Assembly: GCF_026802175.1 (NCBI RefSeq)
Contig: NZ_CP113797.1
Span: 4,503,026 to 4,567,025 of the forward strand
Direction of reading: 5' to 3'
Source: Thermocoleostomius sinensis A174
GTDB lineage: Bacteria; Cyanobacteriota; Cyanobacteriia; Elainellales; Elainellaceae
Length of the DNA stretch: 64,000 bases
Shown here: positions 12,893 to 52,714 of the stretch, piece by piece
How the letters are laid out: each line of letters opens with the position of its first letter
Position numbering within the stretch: position 1 is the first letter of the stretch
Position numbers and translations under genes: made by a program
The notes under the pieces: generated by a model
The model's database searches: none
What the model was told of the DNA's origin: nothing
The model's input: only the letters and a program-made list of their open reading frames with translations

Positions 12893-14443
12893 ATGGGATT
12901 CCTCAACATGATTTCCTTGATTGGAATTTTTGGGTTGTGTGCGATCGCCTGGCTGTTTTCCGAGAATCGCGACCCGAAGTATTTTCCTTGGCGGGTGGTG
13001 ATGTTGGGGCTTTTGTTTCAATTTGCAATTGGTTTCGTTGTATTTGTGCTACCGCAACTGATCCCGCAAGTACGAGATCTCTTAATAGGGCTAGGCAGCT
13101 TCTTAAATCTCGTGTTTGAGGCAGCCGATGCAGGAGCACGGTTTGTATTTGGCAGAAACCTTGTTCCCTTTCCAGGGCAAGACACTTTCTTTTTATCGCC
13201 TCTACCTCCCGGTACAGATAGCTGTACCGCTGACAGTGCTGGTCAAGTAGTTCCAGGTTTTTGTGGCATTCGCTTGGGTTATATCTATGCGTTTCGAGCT
13301 TTGCCAGCCATCATTTTTGTAAGCGGATTGGTGGCCTTACTGTACCGACTAGGAGTAATTCAAGGGCTAGTTCGCTTGTTTGCTGCACTGTTTCATCGCT
13401 CAATGCACTTGAGTGGTGCAGAATCCTTGAGTGGTGTGACGAATATATTTTTGGGAATTGAGGCGGCGATTGTGATTAAACCTTACCTGCCTAGAATGAC
13501 CCGAAGCGAGCTATGCGCTGTGCTTGCCTGTTGTTTCGGCACAGCGACTTCCGCTACATTACCGGCTTATGTAGGTTTATTGCAACCAATCTTTCCCAAT
13601 GTGTCTGTGCATCTAATTGCCGCCTCTATCATGGCAATTCCTGCTTGCTTTTTGTTGTCTAAAATCCTAGTTCCAGAGACAGCCCAGCCCTCAGCAGATT
13701 GGAAGGCGAAACCTGTTGTCACTGAGTCTGCTTGGATCGATCGACCCGATCGTTCAACTTTTGTGACTGAACCAGTGGCGGAACCAATGGATACAACAAT
13801 CGATACAACAACTGTTGATTTGCCAGACGCGACGATTCCAGAGATATCCATTCGCCAACCCACTCCTACCGAAGCCGCGATCGAAGGGGCGATTGAGGGC
13901 GTAAAAATCGCGGCGGCGATCGTCGCTGGACTCATAATGGTATTGGGATTAACCTATTTTGTGGTTCAACTGGCTAACTGGCTGGCCACCTTGCCAAACC
14001 CCGTAGGTGGATGGTTTAGACTTGTGAGTCTTCCCAACATTCTAGGGGCGTTGTCGCTGCCCTTTACAGTTTTGACTGGGGTATCCTTGCGCTGGGAAGA
14101 ACTGTGGCAATGTTCGTTGTTGTTGGGGCGACGGCTGCTGGAGACGGCGATCGTTCCCTATCAATCGGTGACTGTATCTGTGATATCGGGCAGTAACACC
14201 TTTAGCGATCGAGCCGTGCTGTTGCTGAGCTATGCCTTGTCTGGGTTTGCCCATCTAGCATATTGGGGAATTGTAGTCGGCGGGGTGTTTGCCCTACTGC
14301 CATGGCGCCGCAAAGAAGTGATTGGATTGTGCTGGAAAGCGCTGCTGGCTGGTGCTTTGGCCACTTACATGATTGCCTGCGTTGCTGGATTTTTTGATGG
14401 AATTTTTGGAACGAGTACGCTCAATCTTTTGGGCAAATCCTGA
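12893..14443 (+). CDS. NupC-type concentrative nucleoside transporter (CNT family)
   Basis: The 516-residue membrane protein carries the CNT order: an N-terminal pair of helices, the gate-like region RALPAIIFVSGLVALLYRLGVIQ, the substrate signature GAESLSGVTNIFLGIEAAIVIKPYL near residues 178-202, and a C-terminal helical core. CNT proteins import nucleosides with Na+ or H+. About 70 polar residues (near 262-335) replace the usual short loop and are rich in Thr, Pro and Asp (TEPVAEPMDTTIDTTTVDL); this cytoplasmic or periplasmic insertion looks low-complexity. A second insertion, near 98-125, contains two Cys (DSCTADSAG and GFCG). Confidence 0.9.
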   Translation: MGFLNMISLIGIFGLCAIAWLFSENRDPKYFPWRVVMLGLLFQFAIGFVVFVLPQLIPQVRDLLIGLGSFLNLVFEAADAGARFVFGRNLVPFPGQDTFFLSPLPPGTDSCTADSAGQVVPGFCGIRLGYIYAFRALPAIIFVSGLVALLYRLGVIQGLVRLFAALFHRSMHLSGAESLSGVTNIFLGIEAAIVIKPYLPRMTRSELCAVLACCFGTATSATLPAYVGLLQPIFPNVSVHLIAASIMAIPACFLLSKILVPETAQPSADWKAKPVVTESAWIDRPDRSTFVTEPVAEPMDTTIDTTTVDLPDATIPEISIRQPTPTEAAIEGAIEGVKIAAAIVAGLIMVLGLTYFVVQLANWLATLPNPVGGWFRLVSLPNILGALSLPFTVLTGVSLRWEELWQCSLLLGRRLLETAIVPYQSVTVSVISGSNTFSDRAVLLLSYALSGFAHLAYWGIVVGGVFALLPWRRKEVIGLCWKALLAGALATYMIACVAGFFDGIFGTSTLNLLGKS

Positions 14444-14619
14444 GTTCACAATCGTATTGAAAGCTCGGCAACGCCACCAGCTACGCTAGAATTTATTTTT
14501 TTGTAGAAAATCAGGGGTAGGCTGTCTGTGCCCGGAACAATGGATTAGGAGCGAATGCGTCCCGGTCAAGTTCTGCACCGCTCCTATGTCCTCCTGATCC
14601 TATGCGGAGATTTTCTATT

Positions 14620-14889
14620 ATGCCGTATCGCGATTCTCTAAAGCGATGGGTGGTTGTGCGGTTTGTTTCAGCCACCGATCGAGTTCCTGTGGCTCGCTTT
14701 GTCAAATTTTCTGATGCCGAAGGACATGCCCACACGCTCAATCGCCAGCATCCAGCCGATCGCTATTTGGTGATGTTCGATCCTAAAGGACTACCCGATG
14801 TGAATGCGCTTGCACCAGAGCTTTCAGACCTGCCTCCACCTCCTGATTTCACCGAATCATCTACCTGGCATTCCCTTGAGGCACTCTAG
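14620..14889 (+). CDS. conserved-looking small protein, unknown function
   Basis: The 89-residue frame starts at ATG 14620, chosen because GGAG lies 10 nt upstream; an in-frame ATG at 14602 has no such site. The N-terminal half (RWVVVRFVSATDRVPVARFVKFSDAEGHAHTLNRQ) looks like a compact alpha/beta fold, followed by DRYLVMFDPKG and a Pro-rich C-terminal tail. There is no signal peptide or membrane helix. I recognise no family. It lies 176 bp after the nucleoside transporter in the same direction. Confidence 0.65.
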   Translation: MPYRDSLKRWVVVRFVSATDRVPVARFVKFSDAEGHAHTLNRQHPADRYLVMFDPKGLPDVNALAPELSDLPPPPDFTESSTWHSLEAL

Positions 14890-14971
14890 CGATCGCTAGA
14901 AGACGGGTTGAGCAAGAAACACTGAAAACGTGTTCGTTCCAAGTCTGAAAGTTGGATTCCAGATCCTGGGA

Positions 14972-47939: not shown

Positions 47940-48389
47940 TCAGTAAACCCTGCGCCATTTACCAATCCATTCACCGCCGCGAAACCGCCAGCGAGGAAAC
48001 AGTAACCGCATAATTACCCAAGAAGCCAAATAAGTAGAGATCCATACAGCACCATAGTGTAGAACAAAGGTTCCTAGGTTAAAGTGGCTGCCATCAATGA
48101 ATGGTAGCACGTTCAATCGGACCAAAATTGCCAGCAACACGCCCTCAGCAATGCCCGCTAGCAACTGAAATGCCCCTGGCCAGTCGTGATCCCACATAAA
48201 CTTCTGCAAGAAGTTATAGAGAATGTCCCAAAGCAGCCCGAACAGAGCCACATAAAACAGCACCCAATAGTAGGATGTGCCAGGTTCTGTACCCAATAAT
48301 CCTGATGCAAATTTCCAAGTTGTAATCAGTCCAATTGTAGCTAGAAGAAAGATGCGAGTTTGCCAACGGCCAAACAGTGTAGGGGTCAT
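47940..48389 (-). CDS. hypothetical membrane protein with four helices
   Basis: From ATG 48387-48389 the protein has 149 residues. It has about four transmembrane segments (near 15-32, 38-58, 73-90 and 103-127) and a basic C-terminus (FPRWRFRGGEWIGKWRR). The motif LWDILYNFLQKFMWDHDWPGAFQLLAGIAEG lies between helices 2 and 3. Residues encoded upstream of the ATG are Ser-rich and include heptanucleotide repeat, so they are probably not translated. It lies downstream of the FHA-oxidoreductase on the same strand, about 185 bp away. I recognise no family. Confidence 0.7.
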   Translation of the reverse strand: MTPTLFGRWQTRIFLLATIGLITTWKFASGLLGTEPGTSYYWVLFYVALFGLLWDILYNFLQKFMWDHDWPGAFQLLAGIAEGVLLAILVRLNVLPFIDGSHFNLGTFVLHYGAVWISTYLASWVIMRLLFPRWRFRGGEWIGKWRRVY

Positions 48390-48573: not shown

Positions 48574-50691
48574 CTATGGCGATACATTCAACGCCCATTT
48601 ACACCACTGCCACAGAGAACCAATGCCTTCTAAGTAGCGAATTTTAGGTGCTCTGGCAGCAGCGAGGGACTCGGCCGATCGATGGGCAGCATATTGCAAT
48701 CCCAAGAAGGTATCGACAGGAGCATACGGCCCGCCCAATGTGATCACTCCTGCTGCATACATGCGTCCACGATTGTTGCGCATTTTCTTGATTTCAAAAT
48801 CATTCTCAACGTGCAAGCGCATCTGTGGATTCAGGTCTAGGTTGTAGTGATCGATGAGATCGCGCAGTAGGGGATTCTCGCGTGGGTCTGACACCAACCC
48901 GGTACAGTCAATCACAAAATCAGCTTCGATGCGTTCGACCCCTTCATAGCCGCGACTCTTAATATAGGTAACAGGTTGCCCTTTCTCGTTTTGGTCTACT
49001 TTGTCAACCTGACCAAACTTGATGGTGTACCACCCTTCTTTTAAGCCTTCTTTGACGGTTTTGCGCCAATTTCCTCGGCTAGCGGTGGTCGTGCCACCCC
49101 AAGCTTCCAGTAACTCTCGTCGCCGCAATGGATCGGCTGATTCCAGCTTAGCCCGCATGTCTCCGCCCCAGGTTCCTTTGGGCCAGTTAAAGGGTTGAAA
49201 TTCCCAGTGATTTTCCACAAACCGCTTGGCAAAGCCAAACCGATTACCAGATTTTGGCGTGCGGCTGAGATGAATGACCGAAATACGCGGATTCTCTTTA
49301 CGCGCCTTATAAAGCCGATCCATTACCTGTGAACCAACAATACCAAAACCGCGTACAACCACAGTTCCACCAAATTTCTCTAGATGTTCGTATACATGAT
49401 CATGGGGTTCATAACCATGTACTACGGTTTTTACATCTCCCGTTCGCTGCCGATATTCTTGTAAATCATTCAAGAGTTTAATAGCAGGATACCCCGTAGA
49501 AAGATGAATGTACTTGGCAATCAAAAATCGGTAATCAGACGATAGCAATTGAGGTGAGCCGGCAATGGGCGGTTTGGTCGCAGAATAGGCAATCACATAG
49601 CGTCCATCTTCGGTTTTGCGAATGCTGCGAACGCTGCCATATTGCACGACTCGATCCCAGCCAATTCGCTCGGCTTCGCGATCCATCGAGGTAAAAACAT
49701 TGTCGGCGATCGGCGTATAGGTATCGGCAAACGCTGGTTCAGCAAATACTTGCCACAGATGGGAAAGAGCCGACGGAAACCGTGCTGAAAACACTTCTCG
49801 CCATGCCTCCCGCAGCGCATAGCCTGGCCAACCCCAGACGTTATCAGGACAGGAATCCGAACCCGATCGAATGCGCTTATAGCGAGGAATTTGGCAATTG
49901 CGCAGCAGCGCTTCATAGCGAGCATAGGGCTTTTCGGGACGCAACGTTAAGACTCGAATTTGATCAGATCGCACTCCGCAAATGCGAATCATATCTACCC
50001 AAACAAATGAACCCATGCCGCCACCGATCGCCGCATAATCAATTTCTTCGACTGGATAGCCTGTTGCATGAAGGGCATTGATCGACACATGCTCTGCTGC
50101 AAACACATCCGCTGGCGGAAATGGGCGGCGTGTAATACCAGGGGGACGGGTGGGGCGAACGGGCTGGGACTCCAGTTGATCGGTTTCTGGATCAAAAATT
50201 AACGTCGAGGAACTGAGGTTGGCGCTAACTGGTGGTTCTGCGGGCGCACCCGTTGAGCGTATTGCATCTTCGAGTTCATCGGCTGAAACAATGTCTGTTT
50301 GAGGACTGAAAACGATCGTCGATGAGGAACTCAACCGGGTTGCATTGGGGTCTTCGGCTTCCAGCATTTGGACTGTGATGTGATACGTGCCAATCCGAAT
50401 CGTATCTCCCGGGTGTAAGGGGCGTCGTTCTCCCACAATTCGTTCATTATTGAGAACCGTCCCGTTGGTGCTGCGATCTTCCAAAATGGCTTGACCCGCT
50501 ACTTCAAAGATCAATGCGTGATATCGCGAAATCTCATGATTTGTATCTAACAAAACGATGTGATGCACGGGTTGATCATCGAGAATGCGCGGCAGTTGTG
50601 CCAATTCACGCCCAAAGGCGATCGGCAACGGAGAAACTCGCTGCTGGGGTTCTTCGGTAACTGGATCATCCCAAGTCAGTTGCAGTTGCAT
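48574..50691 (-). CDS. FHA domain fused to a flavoprotein-type FAD/NAD(P)-binding oxidoreductase
   Basis: A 705-residue fusion. Residues 1-110 form an FHA domain (FGRE near 26-29, ISRYHA near 54-59, STNGT near 74-78), which reads phosphothreonine. A linker (about 111-205) holds two copies of a short motif, SSTIVFSPQTD and SSTLIFDPETD. From about 218 a Rossmann fold starts at AIGGGMGSFVWVD; a second dinucleotide motif, GFGIVGS, lies at 448-454, and VIDCTG near the end closes an FAD-type domain. The second half resembles SidA/PvdA-like or DUF-type FAD/NAD(P)-binding proteins. The substrate is unknown; phosphorylation-gated redox activity is inference. Confidence 0.85.
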   Translation of the reverse strand: MQLQLTWDDPVTEEPQQRVSPLPIAFGRELAQLPRILDDQPVHHIVLLDTNHEISRYHALIFEVAGQAILEDRSTNGTVLNNERIVGERRPLHPGDTIRIGTYHITVQMLEAEDPNATRLSSSSTIVFSPQTDIVSADELEDAIRSTGAPAEPPVSANLSSSTLIFDPETDQLESQPVRPTRPPGITRRPFPPADVFAAEHVSINALHATGYPVEEIDYAAIGGGMGSFVWVDMIRICGVRSDQIRVLTLRPEKPYARYEALLRNCQIPRYKRIRSGSDSCPDNVWGWPGYALREAWREVFSARFPSALSHLWQVFAEPAFADTYTPIADNVFTSMDREAERIGWDRVVQYGSVRSIRKTEDGRYVIAYSATKPPIAGSPQLLSSDYRFLIAKYIHLSTGYPAIKLLNDLQEYRQRTGDVKTVVHGYEPHDHVYEHLEKFGGTVVVRGFGIVGSQVMDRLYKARKENPRISVIHLSRTPKSGNRFGFAKRFVENHWEFQPFNWPKGTWGGDMRAKLESADPLRRRELLEAWGGTTTASRGNWRKTVKEGLKEGWYTIKFGQVDKVDQNEKGQPVTYIKSRGYEGVERIEADFVIDCTGLVSDPRENPLLRDLIDHYNLDLNPQMRLHVENDFEIKKMRNNRGRMYAAGVITLGGPYAPVDTFLGLQYAAHRSAESLAAARAPKIRYLEGIGSLWQWCKWALNVSP

Positions 50692-50884
50692 AAACCCAAA
50701 TCTCCTGTTATCAAGTACGAATGAACCAGAAAAAACTAATCAATGCTGGTTCTATTGGCTGTTAGTGGATGCAATCAGTAAACCCGATTGAAACCTAGGG
50801 ATACCTCTGTTTGCCTACTTGCTCGAACGATCGCTTCCATCAAACTATGCAGCCATTGGTGATGCAGATGCTTGAAAAATGAAT

Positions 50885-50966
50885 ACGGAGGTGAATCCTA
50901 CACAATTCCTGCCTTAGGCAAGGAAGTAGCTAACTAGTTGCTCATTGTCTCCGCACTAGCCTCCGT
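50885..50966. other. nested stem-loop, possible structured RNA leader
   Basis: ACGGAGG (50885-50891) pairs with CCTCCGT (50960-50966), and inside it TTCCTGCC (50906-50913) pairs with GGCAAGGAA (50917-50925) with one bulge and a TTA loop. It lies in the 420-bp gap between the two FHA genes. No protein is supported in the gap. Confidence 0.4.
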
Positions 50967-50967
50967 G

Positions 50968-50990
50968 GTTTAACCAACCGTTTAACCAAC
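50968..50990. repeat. 12-bp-period direct repeat
   Basis: GTTTAACCAAC occurs at 50968-50978 and again at 50980-50990. The about one-turn period suggests a tandem operator on one DNA face, upstream of the minus-strand FHA-oxidoreductase gene; no regulator is identified. Confidence 0.45.
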
Positions 50991-51111
50991 TATGTATTCT
51001 AAAAACTGCGCTCTTGAAAACTGGCTATCACTGATCGCTCGAGTTTGTCAAATAATTGACACTTGAAGCGTTACAATTCGATGCTTTTATTTACCATGTA
51101 GCCTCGTAGCC

Positions 51112-51645
51112 TCACACCTCAGCTACCGGATAAACGAGTGTTGCTCCTTGCATGACGTAGCCACAAATGTCGCAGTTTAATTTGTCATAGGTCAGCGGGT
51201 GATAGTGCGGAGTTCTGGGATTGCCGCATACTCGTTGATAGATAGGCACGGCAGGTGGTTCAACCGGGACTGGTTGTGTATCAATAGATTTCACCTGTAG
51301 CGCCATTCGACCCAACCGAATTTGGCTGCCTACGTGGAGTGGAACCTCTTCCATCACCACTTTTTGTCCATCTACAACCACGGGATTCGGACGTTTAGGT
51401 GGCTGACGATCGCGCGTTAAATTACGCAAATAGAATTGATGGTGCTCTGGGTTGAAGAAGATTTCAATGTGTAACCCAGAGACGGTTTTTTCAATGGTGG
51501 GATCAGGATGCTTGATGACCACATCACACATCGTCGCATCGCGTCCCACTCGAATCGTTCCGGGGTTTTTAGTCGATTGTTGCAATGAGACGGTTTGCGA
51601 AAGATGCTGATCCGCGGCTGCCCATTCAAGAGTTAACTGTTGCAT
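51112..51645 (-). CDS. FHA-domain protein with C-terminal zinc-ribbon-like motif
   Basis: About 177 residues from ATG 51645 (a GTG two codons upstream is in frame). The FHA domain shows IRVGRD near residue 33, VSGLHIEIF near 55-63 (the Ser/His phosphothreonine contacts) and NLTRDR near 75. The C-terminus has VCGNPRTPHYH followed by LNCDICGYVMQGATLVYP, a Cys/His set that could bind zinc. The sequence begins like the neighbouring FHA-oxidoreductase (short beta strand, LTLEW versus LTWDD). It is 420 bp upstream of that gene, same strand. A redox or kinase partner is not visible. Confidence 0.82.
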   Translation of the reverse strand: MQQLTLEWAAADQHLSQTVSLQQSTKNPGTIRVGRDATMCDVVIKHPDPTIEKTVSGLHIEIFFNPEHHQFYLRNLTRDRQPPKRPNPVVVDGQKVVMEEVPLHVGSQIRLGRMALQVKSIDTQPVPVEPPAVPIYQRVCGNPRTPHYHPLTYDKLNCDICGYVMQGATLVYPVAEV

Positions 51646-51988: not shown

Positions 51989-52714
51989 CTAATCGCGGTT
52001 GAAGGCAATCAGCAACCGCAAGATAAACACAAACAAATTGATGTAAGTCAAATACATCGACAACGCGGCTGGAAGATACTGGTCATCTCGATAAACCCGT
52101 GGCAGCACATAAAAATCAACCACAGCGGCTCCGGCAAACAGCAATGTGCCCATGCCCGAAATAGCAATTTCTAGAAACGTGGGAGTGAACACCCCAAATA
52201 GCGCAAAGAGTAATTGCGCCACCAAAACCACCAGTAGCGCTATGATACCCAAGCGCACGGTTTGCGCCAGCGCCATGCCATCCTTGTCGGACAGATTTGA
52301 ACCAATTTGCCGACCTAGGATAAAGGCAATGCCACAGCCGAGGGCTGCGACACCAATGCCCTGTAGCCCCACCCCCGACGTGTCTAGAGCTACGTAAACA
52401 ATTCCACTGAGCGTATATCCAGACAACAGACTATAGGTTGCTAACAACGGCAGCGCTACGCTGTTGTTGCCTTTTTCAGCGATACCGCGAGCGACAAAGA
52501 ATAGGACTAGCTGAAGGATTAACGCCCCAATGAAGGTGGGCATAAACAAGGCTGGATTTGCGTCGATGATCCGTACTCCAGCATAAGTACCTAGAGCAGT
52601 CAGAACGAGTCCGCCGCCCAAAAACGGTAACGCATTGGCAATTACGTTAGGTCCAACTAACGCTTGCCCTTGTGCTTGCCGAATCGCTTCTCGAAAATTA
52701 CTCGTGTTGCTCAT
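51989..52714 (-). CDS. Bax inhibitor-1/YccA family membrane protein
   Basis: The 241-residue protein has seven predicted helices and the family marks in the C-terminal half (LFALFGVFTPTFLEIAISGMGTLLFAGAAVVDFYVLPRVYRDDQYLPAALSMYLTYINLFVFILRLL), including the Asp pair region of BI-1 channels. BI-1 proteins are pH-sensitive Ca2+-leak channels or membrane-stress factors in the systems studied. It is divergent from sigF with a 354-bp shared region. Confidence 0.9.
   Translation of the reverse strand: MSNTSNFREAIRQAQGQALVGPNVIANALPFLGGGLVLTALGTYAGVRIIDANPALFMPTFIGALILQLVLFFVARGIAEKGNNSVALPLLATYSLLSGYTLSGIVYVALDTSGVGLQGIGVAALGCGIAFILGRQIGSNLSDKDGMALAQTVRLGIIALLVVLVAQLLFALFGVFTPTFLEIAISGMGTLLFAGAAVVDFYVLPRVYRDDQYLPAALSMYLTYINLFVFILRLLIAFNRD

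What the first reader, a model, noticed from the sequence alone, without database searches (positions are those of the whole stretch)
48574..51645. FHA-flavoprotein fusion beside a second FHA protein with a zinc-ribbon-like tail
Two FHA genes on one strand: one fuses an FHA domain to two Rossmann motifs (GGGMGS, GFGIVGS), the other to a Cys-rich tail. FHA domains read phosphothreonine, so a Ser/Thr-kinase input to a redox enzyme is possible. I know of no described system with this pairing.
Basis: partly seen in the sequence, partly recalled or inferred. Interest (0 to 1): 0.62.

Follow-up and report, generated by a model that had tools for sequence, protein, structure and literature searches.

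The report
Three-gene cyanobacterial FHA-flavoenzyme cassette
A protein that joins a phosphothreonine-reading FHA domain to an undescribed flavin enzyme is inherited, across many cyanobacteria, together with a small membrane protein and usually a second FHA protein, which suggests an uncharacterised enzyme system that protein kinases may control.

Summary
The 705-residue protein (FHA + linker + ~515-residue flavoprotein) and the 177-residue FHA/zinc-ribbon protein lie at the stated coordinates. The fusion is not a single-genome oddity: 407 relatives in the genome collection, and all 80 kept loci have the N-terminal FHA. The small FHA gene lies directly upstream, same strand, in about 85-97% of loci. 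Enzyme and membrane protein occur in exactly the same 41 of 146 genomes, and share 60 genomes (61 each) in a sample of 386; the one membrane-protein-only genome holds a broken relic. The small FHA gene is absent in one clade that keeps the other two. The host carries two complete diverged cassettes. The enzyme domain matches no Pfam family, but its predicted fold (pLDDT 85) is a two-dinucleotide-domain flavoprotein closest to NADPH N-hydroxylases and bacillithiol-disulfide reductase. FHA and both dinucleotide-binding motifs are invariant or nearly so. Best reading: an NADPH/FAD enzyme working with a membrane partner, assembled or switched through phosphothreonine. Kinase, substrate and chemistry are unproven. 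I found no published description.

The parts
51112..51645 (-). F1: small FHA protein with C-terminal zinc-ribbon-like tail (177 aa from ATG 51645)
   Evidence: PF00498 35.8 bits; directly upstream of the fusion on the same strand in 29 of 30 and 68 of 80 loci
51310..51555 (-). FHA domain of F1 (residues 31-112)
   Evidence: invariant G34 R35 and S56, near-invariant H59
51160..51228 (-). Zinc-ribbon-like tail of F1 (C140..H..C158xxC161)
   Evidence: C140 and C158 invariant, C161 near-invariant; CxxC..CxxC in 29 of 30 type II members; weak Zn-ribbon Pfam matches in some members
48574..50691 (-). F0: FHA-flavoprotein fusion, 705 aa
50389..50613 (-). N-terminal FHA domain of F0 (residues 27-101)
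   Evidence: PF00498 47.2 bits; G27, S55, R56, H58 invariant, R28 near-invariant in 25 homologues
50296..50322 (-). Linker motif copy 1, STIVFSPQT (residues 124-132); candidate phosphothreonine site
   Evidence: F-[NSDH]-P-x-T in 62 of 80 linkers against about 0.9 in shuffles
50182..50208 (-). Linker motif copy 2, STLIFDPET (residues 162-170); candidate phosphothreonine site
48577..50121 (-). Flavoprotein domain of F0 (residues 191-705), no Pfam family
   Evidence: no family; AlphaFold model pLDDT 85; fold matches
50008..50025 (-). First dinucleotide-binding motif GGGMGS (predicted FAD)
   Evidence: G223, G225, G227 invariant in 49 homologues, S228 in 90% or more
49330..49350 (-). Second dinucleotide-binding motif GFGIVGS (predicted NADPH)
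   Evidence: R447, G448, G450, I451, V452, S454 invariant
47940..48389 (-). F2: four-helix membrane protein, 149 aa, near-invariant N-terminus MTPTLFGRWQTR
   Evidence: no Pfam match for the window copy; occurs in the same genomes as F0; alignment A5; hydropathy

Best explanation
The unit is a three-component system inherited as a block: F1 (FHA + zinc ribbon), F0 (FHA + linker + NADPH/FAD flavoenzyme of an undescribed family) and F2 (four-helix membrane protein). I propose that F0 is a working oxidoreductase, most likely a single-component NADPH-dependent hydroxylase or reductase of the two-dinucleotide-domain type, which acts on or through F2 at the membrane. A Hanks-type Ser/Thr kinase phosphorylates a threonine in the conserved S-x-I-x-F-x-P-x-T motif of F0's flexible linker, in the invariant N-terminal MTPT of F2, or in both. 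The FHA domains of F0 and F1 bind these phosphothreonines and so switch or assemble the complex. F1 is an accessory adaptor, since one clade lacks it. Shown by computation: the three families, their linkage, intact FHA and dinucleotide-binding residues, the fold prediction, and the motif conservation. Inferred: FAD and NADPH binding, catalysis, phosphorylation, the F0-F2 contact and the direction of control.
For: F0 and F2 occur in the identical 41 of 146 genomes (27 of 86 genera), including nine copies where F2 lies elsewhere in the assembly, so this is not only linkage. In 386 genomes: 61 and 61, 60 shared, and the single F2-only genome carries a broken F2 with three internal stops. Completeness control: a neighbouring window gene is in 120 of 146 genomes. 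F1 adjacency 29 of 30 and 68 of 80 loci, always same strand, gaps -4 to 667 nt in 29 measured pairs. F1 in 54 of 61 F0 genomes, and not as a separate small gene without F0. Two complete cassettes in the host (L198); F0 and F1 split into the same two subfamilies (30/22), distance correlation 0.94. FHA residues GR and SxxH conserved. Linker motif 62 of 80 against about 0.9 in shuffles. F2 T2 65/66 and T4 63/66. Fold: SidA TM 0.62/0.70, PvdA Z 23.1 over 375 aa, YpdA Z 24.1 over 313 aa. A stand-alone actinobacterial homologue (38-39% identity) keeps the same core motifs without FHA, as expected of an enzyme. Precedent: OdhI and GarA, FHA proteins that control metabolic enzymes and are switched by a phosphothreonine in the same protein (PMC2784874).
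Against: No phosphosite, kinase, flavin or substrate is measured. No conserved Ser/Thr kinase adjoins the cassette; kinases near some loci (18 of 80) may be background in genomes with dozens of them. The linker motif is missing or altered in some members (for example L116, L119, L124, L141, L147), and the shuffle test ignores shared ancestry. The residue at the end of the second FAD-domain strand is acidic in type II but not in type I (by eye). F1 is absent in one clade. The fold match cannot separate hydroxylase from reductase.
Confidence: 0.45

Rival explanations
1. The FHA domains are constitutive, phosphorylation-independent scaffolds: they hold F0, F1 and F2 together, and the enzyme is controlled by gene expression or substrate alone.
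For: No kinase is linked to the cassette. FHA modules can bind unphosphorylated partners, as OdhI and GarA do with their enzymes (PMC2784874).
Against: Phosphothreonine-contact residues are conserved in both FHA domains, which a purely structural role would not require.
Confidence: 0.25
2. F0 is not a dedicated enzyme but a redox or NADPH sensor: its flavin domain reports redox state through FHA contacts to F1 and F2, like a flavin-based switch.
For: Fusion of a signalling domain to a flavin fold; membrane and zinc-ribbon partners rather than pathway enzymes; no conserved biosynthetic neighbours across all loci.
Against: Many invariant residues are spread over the whole 515-residue domain, including its inserts, and a stand-alone homologue without FHA exists, which fits catalysis better.
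Confidence: 0.13
3. F0 is a siderophore-type N-hydroxylase (lysine, ornithine or diamine) that happens to carry an FHA domain.
For: Best Foldseek matches are SidA, PvdA and DfoA, covering about 375-390 residues.
Against: No PF13434 match in any of 25 members; no profile similarity to a cyanobacterial N-hydroxylase that sits beside a putative exporter, though against a single sequence; no siderophore genes recur beside the cassette.
Confidence: 0.06
4. The two FHA genes are chance neighbours with no shared function.
For: The host has 17 FHA stretches, and one clade has F0 without F1.
Against: Adjacency in 29 of 30 and 68 of 80 loci across diverse genera, a matching subfamily split, and two cassettes in one genome.
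Confidence: 0.02

Closest known systems
OdhI / GarA (actinobacterial FHA regulators of 2-oxoglutarate dehydrogenase and glutamate metabolism)
   Same: An FHA domain controls a metabolic enzyme; a conserved threonine in a flexible segment of an FHA protein is the kinase target and binds the FHA domain (PMC2784874).
   Different: There the FHA protein is a separate small inhibitor. Here FHA is fused to a flavoenzyme, the candidate threonine lies in the linker after the FHA, and a membrane protein is the near-obligate partner. Phosphorylation is unproven here.
Flavin-dependent N-hydroxylating monooxygenases (SidA, PvdA, KtzI, DfoA; PF13434)
   Same: Predicted fold: two dinucleotide-binding domains plus helical insert, TM 0.62/0.70 to SidA, Z 23.1 to PvdA.
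   Different: No Pfam or profile similarity; no siderophore context; FHA fusion; membrane partner.
Bacillithiol-disulfide reductase YpdA/Bdr and thioredoxin-reductase-like flavoproteins
   Same: Highest VIA-align Z (24.1, 313 residues) for the core.
   Different: No CxxC and no invariant cysteine in the domain; about 190 extra residues in inserts.
FHA-containing Hanks kinases of cyanobacteria (PMC2176072)
   Same: Same FHA superfamily; the FHA of one host kinase ORF (C1:4591472-4592653) is the closest FHA domain to F1 outside the cassettes of this genome (43% identity).
   Different: They are kinases; no flavin domain or membrane partner.

Membership tests
FHA domain (PF00498) | Profile match above the curated cut-off | tested here: met
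   F0 47.2 bits, F1 35.8 bits against 20.7; all 25 F0 and all 22 F1 members match
FHA domain (PF00498) | Conserved phosphothreonine-contact residues (GR, SxxH) | tested here: met
   F0: G27, S55, R56, H58 invariant, R28 near-invariant. F1: G34, R35, S56 invariant, H59 near-invariant
FHA domain (PF00498) | Binding of a phosphothreonine peptide | not testable with these tools
   needs a binding assay
N-hydroxylating monooxygenase (PF13434) | Sequence-profile match to PF13434 | tested here: not met
   no match in any of 25 members at E<=0.1; hhalign against one true cyanobacterial N-hydroxylase, probability 0.7% (low power, single sequence)
N-hydroxylating monooxygenase (PF13434) | Fold of the family | tested here: inconclusive
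   SidA/PvdA best by Foldseek and over 375-390 residues, but YpdA and other two-dinucleotide flavoproteins score similarly
N-hydroxylating monooxygenase (PF13434) | NADPH-dependent amine N-hydroxylation | not testable with these tools
   needs enzymology
Thioredoxin-reductase-type disulfide reductase | Redox-active CxxC | tested here: not met
   no invariant cysteine in 49 homologues; only C91 of the domain is near-invariant
GarA/OdhI-type FHA regulator | Separate small protein with an N-terminal phospho-threonine segment before the FHA | tested here: not met
   F1 begins directly in the FHA fold; the candidate threonine motif is in the linker of F0
Known anti-phage defence proteins (PADLOC) | Match to a PADLOC model | tested here: not met
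   no match for any of the three proteins

The most novel reading that the evidence does not exclude
A previously undescribed three-protein, phosphothreonine-gated membrane flavoenzyme system of cyanobacteria: a new FAD/NADPH oxidoreductase family fused to its own FHA reader, a near-obligate new four-helix membrane partner carrying an invariant N-terminal threonine motif, and an FHA/zinc-ribbon adaptor. It would be a direct route from Hanks-type kinases to redox chemistry at a membrane.
Probability: 0.35. Interest if true: 0.78.

Novelty: new variant of a known kind. Interest (0 to 1): 0.6.

Why it matters
Carrier genomes hold dozens of Hanks-type kinases (36 matches in the host), and their targets are mostly unknown (my general knowledge). 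Here an enzyme carries its own phosphothreonine reader and travels with a membrane partner that can be lost with it, so a kinase-to-redox link becomes directly testable. It also adds an enzyme family and a membrane-protein family that Pfam lacks, found in about 16% of sampled cyanobacterial genomes (61 of 386).

Tried and rejected
Sequence search of the flavodomain against Pfam, NCBIfam and the PDB gave no usable relative. PF13434 as a finder of the nearest relatives: the model rings weakly on many NADPH-domain proteins and only one true N-hydroxylase turned up in 98 genomes; hhalign against it and two other flavoproteins was negative. PADLOC: nothing. F2 against the PDB and NCBIfam: nothing relevant. 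DUF3267 ('zincin') matched 8 of 26 F2 members weakly (best E 7.7e-5); I did not accept it because the F2 alignment shows no HExxH motif. Ser/Thr kinase linkage: kinase genes lie near 18 of 80 loci, not convincing given 36 kinase matches in the host. Literature: no description of an FHA-flavoprotein fusion found in the open-licence library; subscription papers were not searchable.

Full report
OBSERVATION. The 705-residue protein has an FHA domain at residues 27-101 and no other accepted Pfam domain; the 179-residue protein (177 from the conserved ATG at 51645) has an FHA domain and a Cys-containing tail. GGGMGS and GFGIVGS are real. Across 25 homologues the key glycines and serines of both motifs are invariant, as are residues in stretches such as RxRSxSDSxPDNxWGxPxYAxR, HLxxGYPAI, NWPK, WGGTTTA and FLGLQ.

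IT IS A WIDESPREAD FAMILY. Full-length homologues occur in 41 of 146 related genomes (27 of 86 genera) at 48-82% identity. A profile of the flavodomain finds it in 61 of 386 genomes drawn from the phylum, and the genome collection has 407 relatives. Among the 80 loci kept, all 80 carry the N-terminal FHA. All titles are cyanobacterial except one bacteroidete MAG contig, probably mis-binned. One relative outside the phylum was found, in Nonomuraea gerenzanensis: a stand-alone flavodomain without FHA, 38-39% identical over nearly its full length. So FHA was probably added to, or lost from, an older enzyme.

THE PARTNERS. The small FHA gene (F1) is directly upstream on the same strand in 29 of 30 first-set loci and 68 of 80 second-set loci. 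F1-F0 gaps run from -4 to 667 nt, 11 of 29 at 60 nt or less. Clustering of neighbours showed a third recurrent gene, the window ORF at 47940-48389. It encodes a 149-residue protein (F2) with four hydrophobic helices, no Pfam match for the window copy, and near-invariant ends: MTPTLFGRWQTR at the start and MRxxFPRWRFRGG near the finish. F2 occurs in exactly the same 41 of 146 genomes as F0. Nine F2 copies lie outside a 6-kb reach of F0, most of them on other contigs or far away, so linkage alone cannot explain the match. In 386 genomes F0 and F2 are each in 61 and share 60. The F0-only genome (G388) is a draft. In the F2-only genome (G488), F2 is a relic with three internal stops and no F0. As a completeness control, another window gene is in 120 of 146 genomes. 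Hypergeometric P values (3e-37 for 146 genomes, 6e-23 by genus; 2e-68 for 386) ignore shared descent and are only a guide. F1 is found in 54 of the 61 F0 genomes; the seven without it are in three genera (g88, g89, g98) that share the 4-506 profile match, and the Dolichospermum/Anabaena/Aphanizomenon loci of the second set also lack it beside F0. No small F1 gene was found without F0. F0+F2 is therefore the core and F1 an accessory.

TWO SUBFAMILIES. The host genome has a second complete cassette at C1:2219712-2222816. F0 and F1 divide into the same two subfamilies (30 type II, 22 type I) with correlated distances (r 0.94); F2 correlates at 0.78, and its average-linkage cut did not reproduce the split. 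Type II tails of F1 are CxxC..CxxC; type I tails have His in place of the second Cys in most members. Window type I and II copies are 57% (F0), 44% (F1) and 50% (F2) identical.

WHAT THE ENZYME DOMAIN IS. No Pfam family and no PDB relative by sequence. A 49-sequence AlphaFold model has pLDDT 85 and pTM 0.85. Foldseek ranks SidA first (E 9e-17, TM 0.59-0.62 on the query and 0.66-0.70 on the target). VIA-align gives YpdA Z 24.1 (313 of 322), PvdA Z 23.1 (375 of 410), KtzI Z 22.5 (386 of 414). The domain is therefore a two-dinucleotide-domain flavoprotein with a large insert. Within this superfamily I lean to the NADPH hydroxylase side, because those structures cover 60-70 more residues and because there is no CxxC or invariant Cys; Z values within about 1 are tied. 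By eye, an HLxxGYP strand precedes the second Rossmann motif and an IIDxTGL strand follows it, as in NADPH monooxygenases; I mark this as a resemblance, not a test.

HOW IT MAY BE CONTROLLED. Both FHA domains keep the GR and SxxH residues. The linker of F0 (median 45 residues; residues 113-162 of the window protein below pLDDT 50) is variable except for one motif, S-x-[ILV]-x-F-x-P-x-T. F-[NSDH]-P-x-T is found in 62 of 80 linkers against about 0.9 in composition shuffles, and the window protein has two copies. Shared ancestry inflates that contrast, but the motif spans both subfamilies. The N-terminus of F2 offers two further near-invariant threonines. OdhI and GarA set the precedent: a phosphothreonine in a flexible segment binds the protein's own FHA and blocks its binding to partners, which releases a metabolic enzyme (PMC2784874). 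I propose the same logic built into the enzyme, with F2 as membrane partner. The kinase cannot be named: the host has 36 kinase matches, none adjacent.

VERDICT. Real, widespread and undescribed in the literature I could search; not an artefact. Function remains inferred. New variant of a known kind (FHA-controlled enzyme), with two protein families that lack a Pfam entry.

Noticed in passing
G488:C1:3657581-3658011 (L196 8582-9012): Broken F2 relic (three in-frame stops, split frame) in the one genome that has F2 but no F0: a natural case of joint loss.
   Followed up: partly
L158:14911-16455 (Nonomuraea gerenzanensis): Stand-alone homologue of the flavodomain in an actinobacterium, without FHA; the upstream gene is 14089-14907. 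Its reaction might be inferred from more actinobacterial neighbours.
   Followed up: partly
L110-L157 (31 of 80 loci): A gene that looks like endonuclease V (by eye, not profile-tested) lies just upstream of the type II cassette in 31 loci; possibly only old synteny.
   Followed up: no
L078-L102 (16 of 80 loci): A lipoprotein-like gene with a YHS-like region (by eye) lies downstream of many type I cassettes.
   Followed up: no
L119, L124, L141, L144, L147 (upstream, opposite strand): A gene fusing an FHA domain to a membrane region that looks like PrsW protease (by eye) stands beside the cassette in five loci.
   Followed up: no
G000:C1:4591472-4592653: A kinase-FHA ORF about 37 kb from the window cassette has the FHA domain closest to F1 outside the cassettes in this genome (43% identity): a candidate kinase.
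   Followed up: no
L097: A contig titled Crocinitomicaceae MAG carries a complete cyanobacterial-type cassette; probably mis-binned.
   Followed up: no
L089-L102 and G183, G195, G217, G232, G276, G278, G356: A group of Nostocales-like genomes keeps F0 and F2 but lacks F1; in L089-L102 the linker motif reads like STIFNPQS and SSIIFNPYTD.
   Followed up: partly
window 51989-52714 (-): Bax-inhibitor-1 family membrane protein (PF01027) next to the cassette; not among the recurrent neighbours listed for other loci.
   Followed up: no
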